Of a stretch of 64,000 bases of DNA, positions 23,317-25,715 are shown one piece after another (positions within the stretch are counted from its first letter, which is position 1; every line of letters starts with the position of its first letter). Position numbers and translations under genes: made by a program. This stretch comes from Bacteroidia bacterium. GTDB lineage: Bacteria; Bacteroidota; Bacteroidia; Chitinophagales; JAUHXS01. The notes under the pieces were generated by a model. That model saw only the letters and a program-made list of their open reading frames with translations, made no database searches and had not been told where the DNA came from. The stretch is taken from assembly GCA_030426955.1 (NCBI GenBank), contig JAUHXS010000004.1, positions 186,001 to 250,000 of the forward strand. Direction: 5' to 3'.

Positions 23317-23835
23317 ATGTTAAGCAAAAAAGTAGAAAAAGCACTCAACAAACAAATTAAAATAGAGGCAGAGTCATCACAGTTTTACTTGGCCATGGCC
23401 TCGTGGAGTGAAACACAAGGGTTCAATGGAACGGCAGCTTTTTTATATGCTCATTCTGATGAGGAACGTTTCCACATGCTTAAGCTAGTAAAGTTTGTTA
23501 ATGAGCGGGGTGGACATGCTATCACACCTGCTTTGGAGCAGCCCCCAAAAGAATTTAACTCTTTAAATACTATTTTTAAAAATTTGCTAGAGCACGAGAT
23601 GGCTGTAACTCAATCTATCAACGAAGTAGTTGATGTTTGTTTACAAGAAAAAGACTACACTACCCATAATTTCATGCAATGGTATGTTGCAGAGCAAATT
23701 GAAGAAGAGTCGCTAGCAAGAACTATCATGGATAAAATCAATATGATCGGATCCGACAAAGGTGGCTTATACTTATTTGACAGAGACTTAGAGACTATGG
23801 CTGGCAGTAATGAGTCGGTTTCTGTTGCTAAGTAA
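23317..23835 (+). CDS. ftnA: ferritin (bacterial non-haem type)
   Basis: A 172-residue four-helix iron-storage protein that oxidises Fe(II) and stores it as mineral inside a 24-mer. Ferroxidase ligands are at FtnA positions: E17, E50 and H53 in DEERFHML, E94 in LEHEMAV, and Q127/E130 in AEQIEEE. There is no haem-binding Met typical of bacterioferritin. It is followed directly by a strong hairpin terminator. The upstream region shows no copy of the TTAGA-N5-TCTAA motif found before sufB, so the two iron-related loci need not share that operator. Confidence 0.96.
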   Translation: MLSKKVEKALNKQIKIEAESSQFYLAMASWSETQGFNGTAAFLYAHSDEERFHMLKLVKFVNERGGHAITPALEQPPKEFNSLNTIFKNLLEHEMAVTQSINEVVDVCLQEKDYTTHNFMQWYVAEQIEEESLARTIMDKINMIGSDKGGLYLFDRDLETMAGSNESVSVAK

Positions 23836-23851
23836 ATTTAACAATAGAAAT

Positions 23852-23890
23852 ATAAAGAAGTCTAGCAGGTTTACTGCTAAACTTCTTTAT
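23852..23890 (+). terminator. hairpin terminator after ferritin
   Basis: Arms AAAGAAGTCTAGCAG (23854-23868) and CTGCTAAACTTCTTT (23874-23888) pair over 15 positions with a single mismatch and a 5-base loop. The stem base is A/T-rich on both sides, so it could stop transcription in both directions, including that of the minus-strand peptide gene that ends at 23900. Confidence 0.7.
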
Positions 23891-23899
23891 TAATATCTC

Positions 23900-24091
23900 C
23901 TAGAGGGGAATAGGCAATATTGGTCTTTTAAGACCTTTAGCATTAGGCCCTCTAGAGCTAAAGCTTACTATAGAACCTCCTTGAGAAATTGCTCCAACCG
24001 AGATAACATTTGGGGAAGTACCTGGACCTTCTTGGGTAGAAATTCCTCCGATAATACATGACAGATCACTATTTTTTATTTGTCTCATCAT
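23900..24091 (-). CDS. 63-residue peptide: double-glycine leader joined to a subtilase-like segment
   Basis: The first 16 residues (MMRQIKNSDLSCIIGG) fit the double-glycine leader consensus cut by peptidase-containing ABC transporters: Gly at -1 and -2, Ile at -4, Leu at -7, Asp at -8, Ile at -12. The remaining 47 residues do not look like a bacteriocin. SPNVISVGAI and SFSSRGPNAKG are the block found in S8 (subtilisin) proteases between the oxyanion-hole region and the catalytic Ser motif, which is absent here; a proline-rich tail (RPILPIPL) follows. So this is either a real small secreted peptide or a remnant of an S8 protease gene that by chance looks leader-like. No PCAT-type transporter lies in the window. 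It sits at the edge of the IS-containing island. Confidence 0.5.
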   Translation of the reverse strand: MMRQIKNSDLSCIIGGISTQEGPGTSPNVISVGAISQGGSIVSFSSRGPNAKGLKRPILPIPL

Positions 24092-24442
24092 AACTGCTGT
24101 TTATTGTTTTATTAAATATTTAAGGTAAGGTAAGTATCTACATATATTTTCGAAAAGCAAAATATGTTATAAATTCGGATTCCAAATAAAAAGTTTAATT
24201 TAGAAATCTCTTTAATGATTTCAAGAAAAAGAAGATACAAAGGAAGAGATAGGATAAAAGTGGGCCCAGCAGGACCGATTTGAACTTGAACGCATTTATA
24301 TAAGTTTCATTAGAACACATGTTAGATCACGCTGAATCGATTGATATTGCTCTGTTTCTTGCTTTGTCTTTATTTCGAGATATTATTTAGATCAAACAAA
24401 AACGTCAACTGAGACGTCAACCGTAGTATCAACTACCTTTTA
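24092..24442. other. gene-free part of the accessory island
   Basis: About 350 bases between the leader-peptide gene and the IS element. The part next to the peptide start is AT-rich and may hold its promoter. 24261-24292 resembles a tRNA 3' end (listed separately). Near the IS there is a direct repeat ACGTCAAC at 24402-24409 and 24414-24421 (12-bp period). No open frame of note is present on either strand. Confidence 0.5.
24261..24292 (-). other. degraded tRNA 3' end (possible old integration site)
   Basis: Read on the minus strand it gives GTTCAAGT, then about nine extra bases, then TCCTGCTGGGCCCA followed by CTTTT. Removing the extra bases leaves a normal T-loop/T-stem plus a 7-base acceptor strand ending in the discriminator A, as at tRNA 3' ends. 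No anticodon arm, D arm or 5' acceptor strand is nearby, so no functional tRNA is encoded. Integrating elements often leave such 3'-end copies as att sites. Confidence 0.4.
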
Positions 24443-24450
24443 ATTAAAGT

Positions 24451-24990
24451 CTAATAATTAATTTCACATATTTTCAATAATTTATCATTAGGTTTTAGGT
24501 AATGAGAGAACATTTTCCAAAAAGCAATTTTACGCTCCTTTAAAGAATGGATAAATCTATTATGAGTGATTTTTTTTCGCATATACCACCAAGCTCGTTC
24601 AATAGGATTTAAGTTGGGACTATATGGAGGAAGATAAACCAGTTCTAATTGAGGCTTTGTAAGCAACCACTTTTTTAAAAGTTTAGCGTGGTGGTATCGT
24701 ACGTTGTCTAGAACTAAAATGATTTTGGAGTGAGCCCTATATTGGTAGAGCACTTTTTTGAGATGCTTCTTAAAGCTTTGGTAATTGCCTTTATCATGGA
24801 AACTAACTACAATTTGACCAGTTTGGTAATTATAGCTTCCCATAGCTGTTTGTCGTTCTCTTTTATTCTGCTTACATTTTATCATTGGCTGGCTACCTTT
24901 TAAACTCCATTTGTAATTTACTGTGGCAGTATTTGAAAGAGAAAATTCATCTTCAAACAATAGTACAGTATCAAGAGGACTTTCTAAGAG
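24451..24990 (-). CDS. IS630 transposase, DDE catalytic part (second frame)
   Basis: The catalytic half of the transposase. Metal-binding acidic residues lie in LLFEDEFSLSN (first Asp), LVLDNVRYHHAK (second Asp) and PNLNPIERAWW (Glu 36 residues later), the D-D-E spacing of IS630. The frame is open back to the A8 run and reads KLLESPLDTVLL before the first motif, so it is the direct continuation of the first frame. It has no start codon of its own beyond a TTG at 24960. The stop codon lies inside the left inverted repeat. Confidence 0.85.
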   Translation of the reverse strand, partial: LLESPLDTVLLFEDEFSLSNTATVNYKWSLKGSQPMIKCKQNKRERQTAMGSYNYQTGQIVVSFHDKGNYQSFKKHLKKVLYQYRAHSKIILVLDNVRYHHAKLLKKWLLTKPQLELVYLPPYSPNLNPIERAWWYMRKKITHNRFIHSLKERKIAFWKMFSHYLKPNDKLLKICEINY

Positions 24991-25498
24991 TTTTTTTTAA
25001 CTCTTCTTTGAATTGTTCCTGAGCAATTAAATCTGCCTCAGGGTAAAATCCTTTGGCTTTTTGATAACTGAAACCTAAGGATTTTATCACATTATAGATT
25101 TGGGCCTTTTTGTACTGAACTTGAAAATTTTCACTTATCCAATCAATAAGCATGATTCCTGTCCAAGTCTCCGTATTATAACCATAATCAACGGGAGATT
25201 CTTCTAATAATAAATCCTTTATCCTCTGTTGTTGATGTTCGTTTAGTCTTGGTTTTCTACCCCTTCCTGGTTTATCTCTCAAACCATCTATTCCATATTG
25301 TTCAAAGCGATGAACCCAATTAAGAATCTGCTTGAAACTTGTGTTATATAGGGTTTCTAAATCACGACTCGGCACGCCAAGACTAACTTGATAAACTGCA
25401 TATAACCGAATACCTATTTGATATTTATCATCAGTTTTAAATAATGCCTTTATTTGTTCAGAACTATAACCTTGTATTTGATATGTCTTCCTTCCCAT
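24971..25498 (-). CDS. IS630 transposase, DNA-binding part (first frame)
   Basis: A 175-residue N-terminal half with a helix-turn-helix (YQVSLGVPSRDLETLYNTS) and a winged-helix-like second part (RDKPGRGRKPRLN, SPVDYGYNTETWTGIML). It ends at TGA shortly after a run of eight A (minus strand; 24991-24998). With seven A the frame would run straight into the DDE half and give one ~350-residue transposase. Several IS630 members make a fused product by slippage on such runs; equally the extra base may be an inactivating mutation. Confidence 0.82.
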   Translation of the reverse strand: MGRKTYQIQGYSSEQIKALFKTDDKYQIGIRLYAVYQVSLGVPSRDLETLYNTSFKQILNWVHRFEQYGIDGLRDKPGRGRKPRLNEHQQQRIKDLLLEESPVDYGYNTETWTGIMLIDWISENFQVQYKKAQIYNVIKSLGFSYQKAKGFYPEADLIAQEQFKEELKKTLRKSS

Positions 25499-25715
25499 TT
25501 TTAATGGAAAGTTAATATATATTTGTGTAATTTAAAAATAGACTTTATTTAATAGATTTTCTCATCTTACCAAACGGGGTTAGTTTTAGTTGACAAACTG
25601 TATAGTTTACTATTTTATGTAACGTTATTTCAGGCTGAGACAATGCTTAACCTGTGAGAGAAAATATAATTTATAGTCCTTTTTTATTAGAATTTCACTA
25701 TTGACTAAAAGAACT

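What the first reader, a model, noticed from the sequence alone, without database searches (positions are those of the whole stretch)
23900..24091. Peptide with a double-glycine leader fused to a subtilase-like segment
Residues 1-16 match the peptidase-ABC (PCAT) double-glycine leader consensus at every key position (I-12, D-8, L-7, I-4, GG). The body is not bacteriocin-like: it copies the subtilase block NVISVGAI...SFSSRGPN that normally precedes the catalytic Ser loop, which is absent. It may be a real secreted peptide or a chimeric remnant left in the island.
Basis: partly seen in the sequence, partly recalled or inferred. Interest (0 to 1): 0.6.

Follow-up and report, generated by a model that had tools for sequence, protein, structure and literature searches.

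The report
Orphan export-leader peptide with protease-derived body
A 63-residue reading frame joins a convincing peptide-export leader to a 40-residue piece of a subtilisin-type protease; the same genome carries a matching export pump, but no second copy of this chimera was found, so it is either a one-off secreted peptide or a chance fusion of a protease fragment.

Summary
The frame at 23900-24091 is real and lies on the minus strand. Residues 1-16 fit the double-glycine leader recognised by peptidase-containing ABC transporters at I-12, D-8, L-7, I-4 and GG. Residues 18-57 match Pfam S8 subtilase PF00082 (E=1.1e-5, profile 162-203 of 288). No catalytic residue is present. The strict leader motif occurred in 0 of 10,302 short ORFs of simulated sequence. 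The genome has one intact-looking C39-ABC transporter with an HlyD partner, and at least three other GG-leader small ORFs. In the same order a leader of the same length and register (MKTIKIPELQLIFGG) sits about 3 kb downstream of such a transporter. Codon choice in the ORF is gene-like. Against a functional gene: no same-length homologue appeared in about 1,240 distinct related genomes, 84,980 species genomes, or the viral, plasmid and phage collections; every S8 match lies in a protease ORF of at least 444 aa; and the body keeps the S8 consensus, as a young fragment would. No S8 remains flank the frame. Best reading: a genuine but orphan PCAT-type secreted peptide precursor whose 47-residue cargo was recruited from an S8 protease segment (about 0.5). 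Main rival: a non-functional in-frame S8 fragment (about 0.35).

The parts
23900..24091 (-). 63-aa ORF, candidate precursor peptide (stop codon 23900-23902)
   Evidence: gene-like synonymous codons
24044..24091 (-). residues 1-16 MMRQIKNSDLSCIIGG, double-glycine leader (15 aa if the second ATG is used)
   Evidence: motif positions read directly; 0/10,302 simulated ORFs with the strict motif; analogous leader MKTIKIPELQLIFGG about 3 kb downstream of a C39-ABC gene in a genome of the same order
23921..24040 (-). residues 18-57, segment homologous to the S8 subtilase block before the catalytic Ser
   Evidence: PF00082 E=1.1e-5; roughly 36-61% identity to blocks inside long S8 ORFs
23903..23920 (-). 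residues 58-63 ILPIPL, tail that no longer follows S8 (S8 consensus here D-V-V-A-x-G)
   Evidence: column comparison
23852..23890 (.). 17-bp hairpin, terminator-like on both strands, about 10 bp after the ORF stop and 17 bp after the convergent ferritin stop

Best explanation
The frame encodes an orphan double-glycine precursor peptide. Proposed path: the leader (residues 1-16) is bound by the C39 peptidase domain of the genome's peptidase-containing ABC transporter; cleavage after G16 releases a 47-residue peptide, which is exported through the ABC/HlyD channel. The cargo was recruited from a 40-residue S8 protease segment. Shown by sequence: the leader motif, the S8 homology starting right after the GG, an intact-looking transporter pair, and other GG-leader ORFs in the genome. 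Inferred: transcription, processing, export. What the mature peptide does is a guess: an intercellular peptide (competition or signalling), or a decoy that interferes with subtilase folding or activity. It cannot itself be a protease.
For: Leader matches the consensus L-12/E-8/L-7/GG (PMC6363468), with 0/10,302 by simulation. Leader of 15-16 aa and mature peptide of 47 aa fall in the range reported for bacteroidetocins, leader 15-16 and mature 42-48 (PMC6671954). The genome has one C39 match, in a 729-aa C39-ABC protein followed by HlyD. At least three other GG-leader small ORFs lie away from that transporter, so an orphan location is normal here. A leader in the same register lies downstream of a C39-ABC gene in the same order. 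S8 homology begins at residues 16-18, just after the predicted cleavage site, while residues 1-15 score about -18 bits (summed) against the S8 profile. Synonymous codon score 0.076 against 0.040 +/- 0.042 for genes; only 0.35% of background-codon versions reach it. Terminator-like hairpin just after the stop.
Against: No same-length homologue anywhere searched. No close relative is held, so selection cannot be measured. The transporter is on another contig (C9 versus C19). The leader alone finds no family model. The body keeps the S8 consensus, as a recently captured and not yet decayed fragment would. No clear Bacteroidota promoter was found upstream.
Confidence: 0.5

Rival explanations
1. 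A non-functional remnant: an internal S8 fragment of about 120 bp was left or inserted here in frame with 14-16 upstream codons that look like a leader by chance.
For: All homologues are in long S8 protease ORFs; highly conserved S8 positions are kept, as expected of a young fragment (biased by the retrieval seeds); the tail leaves S8 abruptly and a stop follows; an IS630 element lies about 350 bp upstream. With a two-residue gap the GG could itself be the Gly-rich S8 loop (GGPGAST in L066).
Against: No other S8 remains in any frame at 23500-25600; no donor in the genome, the nearest own S8 being 46% identical over 35 aa; a chance leader of this quality is rarer than 1 in 1,000 short ORFs; codon choice is gene-like, although an S8 donor with similar codon usage would give that too.
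Confidence: 0.35
2. A genuine small protein that stays in the cell, for instance a decoy or assembly competitor of S8 proteases, the leader-like N terminus being coincidental.
For: The body keeps the block that forms core strands next to the S8 active site (family knowledge); the genome has at least five S8 protease ORFs.
Against: Subtilases are normally exported, and the one literature search made found no paper on a GG leader with a subtilase body; the leader motif is strong.
Confidence: 0.08
3. The frame is not translated, and the sequence is the 3' untranslated part of neighbouring transcripts.
For: No promoter evidence beyond weak matches; no homologous short ORF.
Against: Gene-like codon choice and a significant protein-level match in one frame only.
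Confidence: 0.07

Closest known systems
Bacteroidetocins (class IIa-like peptides of Bacteroidota)
   Same: GG leader of 15-16 aa, mature size 42-48 aa versus 47 here, C39-ABC transporter present in the genome
   Different: No cysteines in the mature part (bacteroidetocins have two to four); no transporter or thiol oxidoreductase next to the gene; cargo is S8-like
Peptidase S8 subtilases (PF00082)
   Same: Residues 18-57 align to the block before the catalytic Ser
   Different: Only about 40 of 288 profile positions; no Asp, His, oxyanion Asn or Ser; 63 aa in all
Nif11- and nitrile hydratase-related precursor peptides (NHLP), recalled from general knowledge, not tested
   Same: A RiPP precursor family with a part derived from an enzyme
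   Different: There the enzyme-derived part is the leader; here it would be the cargo, and no modifying enzyme is adjacent

Membership tests
PCAT (C39-ABC) double-glycine substrate | Leader with hydrophobic -12, acidic -8, L-7, hydrophobic -4 and GG/GA/GS | tested here: met
   consensus from PMC6363468
PCAT (C39-ABC) double-glycine substrate | A C39 peptidase-ABC transporter encoded in the genome | tested here: met
   G000:C9, 729 aa, C39 + ABC membrane + ATPase Pfam matches, HlyD next
PCAT (C39-ABC) double-glycine substrate | Cleavage after GG and export | not testable with these tools
   needs biochemistry
PCAT (C39-ABC) double-glycine substrate | Leader matches a curated leader or bacteriocin family model (a convenience of annotation rather than a strict requirement) | tested here: inconclusive
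   no Pfam or NCBIfam match for the leader alone up to E=10; three other GG peptides of this genome also stay below cut-off, so these models do not detect GG leaders of this genome
Bacteroidetocin | At least two cysteines in the peptide | tested here: not met
   only one Cys, in the leader; definition from PMC6671954
Bacteroidetocin | Transporter and usually thiol oxidoreductase genes nearby | tested here: not met
   neighbours are ferritin, an IS630-type transposase and atpC/atpD
Peptidase S8 | Homology to the S8 domain | tested here: met
   PF00082 above cut-off in the scan of the peptide
Peptidase S8 | Catalytic Asp/His/Ser triad in a complete domain | tested here: not met
   only profile positions 162-203; residues absent
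S8 pseudogene | Flanking frameshifted or interrupted remains of the rest of the gene | tested here: not met
   no S8 match in six frames at 23500-25600 apart from this ORF

The most novel reading that the evidence does not exclude
A PCAT-secreted peptide whose whole mature part is a segment recruited from an S8 protease, exported perhaps to interfere with rival or own subtilases: an enzyme core fragment turned into a secreted effector peptide.
Probability: 0.3. Interest if true: 0.65.

Novelty: new variant of a known kind. Interest (0 to 1): 0.38.

Why it matters
If real, it shows how new secreted peptides can arise by placing a leader in front of a piece of an unrelated enzyme. It would also point to an unexplored pool of orphan GG-leader genes in Bacteroidota, which bacteriocin searches keyed to transporter neighbourhoods would miss.

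Tried and rejected
S8 pseudogene with frameshifted flanks: rejected by tblastn of 41 S8 ORFs and an hmmsearch at maximum sensitivity on six frames of 23500-25600. A frameshifted continuation in frame 2 at about 23880-23930 (KTNIAYSPLGDINKEV): a profile scan scores above 99.8% of random 16-mers, but the best match repeats a part of S8 already present in frame 0, overlaps the terminator hairpin and was one of several frames looked at, so it is treated as chance. Copy of an own S8 gene: the nearest is 46% identical over 35 aa. Phage, viral or plasmid peptide: no match. Other GG peptides with the strict motif in the genome: the other eight hits are internal to long ORFs, in tiny frames or at the start of an oxidoreductase-like long ORF. 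PDB: the top hit by E-value was 6-deoxyerythronolide B synthase (0.004 for the whole sequence, best stretch only 0.55), treated as chance; subtilisins follow at 0.04. No structure was predicted: a 47-residue fragment with only S8 relatives would return the S8 fold and not separate the hypotheses.

Full report
What is there. The ORF is on the minus strand at 23900-24091. Reading minus-strand DNA, the frame opens only three codons above the first ATG (TAVMM...). It ends with TAG, about 10 bp before a 17-bp hairpin that is terminator-like on both strands and is shared with the convergent ferritin gene 23317-23835. Upstream lie about 345 bp without a good ORF, then an IS630-type element (inverted repeats 24437-24490 and 25502-25555; HTH and DDE_3 transposase halves), then atpC and atpD in the same orientation as the peptide (product names by my reading of the sequence).

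The body. Residues 18-57 match Pfam Peptidase_S8 at E=1.1e-5 over profile positions 162-203 of 288. Closest S8 blocks: Candidatus Uabimicrobium amorphum, 53% over 40 aa; a Chloroflexi MAG, 61% over 33 aa; a genome of the same phylum, 55% from residue 16 to 57 without gaps. Every S8 match listed lies in a long ORF: 444-1,915 aa in the first sets and up to 2,051 aa in the class sample. No short homologue was found in 59 relatives, 396 genomes of the order, 395 of the phylum, 395 of the class (overlapping samples, about 1,240 distinct genomes by my estimate), 84,980 species genomes (a seeded scan, so divergent short homologues could be missed), IMG/VR, PLSDB or INPHARED. Metagenomes could not be searched. 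No residue of the catalytic machinery lies in the segment. S8 similarity stops at P57; the last six residues ILPIPL do not follow the S8 consensus.

Is it a pseudogene? tblastn of 41 S8 ORFs and a profile search of all six frames across 23500-25600 found S8 similarity only in this ORF. The remains that would mark a decayed S8 gene are therefore missing on both sides. A two-sided loss leaving exactly this block, or insertion of a small fragment, is still possible.

The leader. Counting back from G16: I-12, D-8, L-7, I-4, GG. The published consensus for C39 recognition is Leu-12, Glu-8, Leu-7 before the GG/GA/GS motif (PMC6363468). Among 10,302 simulated ORFs of 35-120 aa (first-order Markov sequence from the window) none carried the strict motif and 7 a looser one. 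In 176 kb of this genome the looser motif occurred five times in 405 ORFs; three of these are clear GG-leader peptides and one is this ORF, but several of those stretches were fetched because they held GG hits, so the count is not an unbiased rate. Against the S8 profile residues 1-15 sum to about -18 bits. An alternative register with a two-residue gap would let the GG itself come from the Gly-rich S8 loop; then only residues 1-14 are new.

The genome context. One C39 match exists: a 729-aa C39/ABC-membrane/ATPase protein at G000:C9, followed by a 453-aa HlyD protein. It keeps the DCGPTC cysteine motif and the HFVVVYE and ADP stretches. No GG peptide lies beside it, but other GG-leader small ORFs do occur elsewhere: MKQKTLKVKLNEKHLLKIKGG... 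and MNDMKTNTLNKIKAKHLSKIKGG... in tandem, and MENIQIINKDSLGEIKGG.... Orphan placement is thus usual in this genome. In genome G067 of the same order, MKTIKIPELQLIFGG... has the same length and register as MRQIKNSDLSCIIGG (7 of 15 identical) and lies about 3 kb downstream of a C39-ABC gene, with a second GG-leader ORF between; the two transporters are 31% identical. A leader pattern anchored on the start codon found three genomes in 298 of the order (this one, G067 and one more with a mismatch) and nothing with the reversed control pattern. The third hit (G111, MKNINTVKLNLICGG) did not show up as a small GG-leader ORF in the stretch fetched. The G067 case is the strongest sign that the leader type is genuine.

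Codon evidence. The ORF's synonymous codon score is 0.076, against 0.040 +/- 0.042 for 63-codon stretches of genes and -0.049 +/- 0.048 for the same peptide with background codons (0.35% reach the observed value). This says the DNA is, or recently was, coding sequence. It does not distinguish a gene from a fragment of a lost S8 gene with similar codon use.

Judgement. Leader, size (15-16 aa leader, 47 aa mature; bacteroidetocins 15-16 and 42-48, PMC6671954), transporter and codon use favour a true precursor peptide. Lack of any homologue and retention of S8 consensus leave a chimeric, perhaps meaningless, fragment at about one in three. It is not a bacteroidetocin (no mature cysteines, no neighbouring transporter) and not a protease. 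The mode of action proposed for the mature peptide is inference only.

Noticed in passing
window 24253-24412: Repeat containing a tRNA-Met-3'-end-like stretch (GTGGGCCCAGCAGGA) with relatives at G000:C15:79003-79162 (83%) and C12:51594-51661 (75%, matching only 24355-24422); a 19-nt core (24257-24275) is identical to the 3' end region of a tRNA-Met gene on C9. Possibly an attachment-site or mobile-element trace.
   Followed up: partly
window 24437-25555: IS630-type element; transposase split in two ORFs (HTH half 24971-25498, DDE half 24451-24960) around a run of A, suggesting programmed frameshifting.
   Followed up: partly
L089:5655-5968 (G000:C5): Two tandem GG-leader peptides (47 and 41 aa) with similar cargo starts (GGGLDEVGILT / GGGIEEVGILT), no transporter seen in the 12 kb fetched.
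   Followed up: no
L091:6320-6568 minus (G000:C19, 58 kb from the finding): 74-aa GG-leader ORF whose cargo holds two copies of an Arg-rich repeat around HPxAIxRxR.
   Followed up: no
L114:3133-8395 (G067): C39-ABC locus in the same order with at least two GG-leader small ORFs downstream.
   Followed up: partly
window 23769-23888: Sub-threshold Rfam match to Bacteroides sRNA BTnc231 (29.6 bits, gathering 80.4) over the ferritin 3' end and hairpin; probably just the terminator.
   Followed up: no
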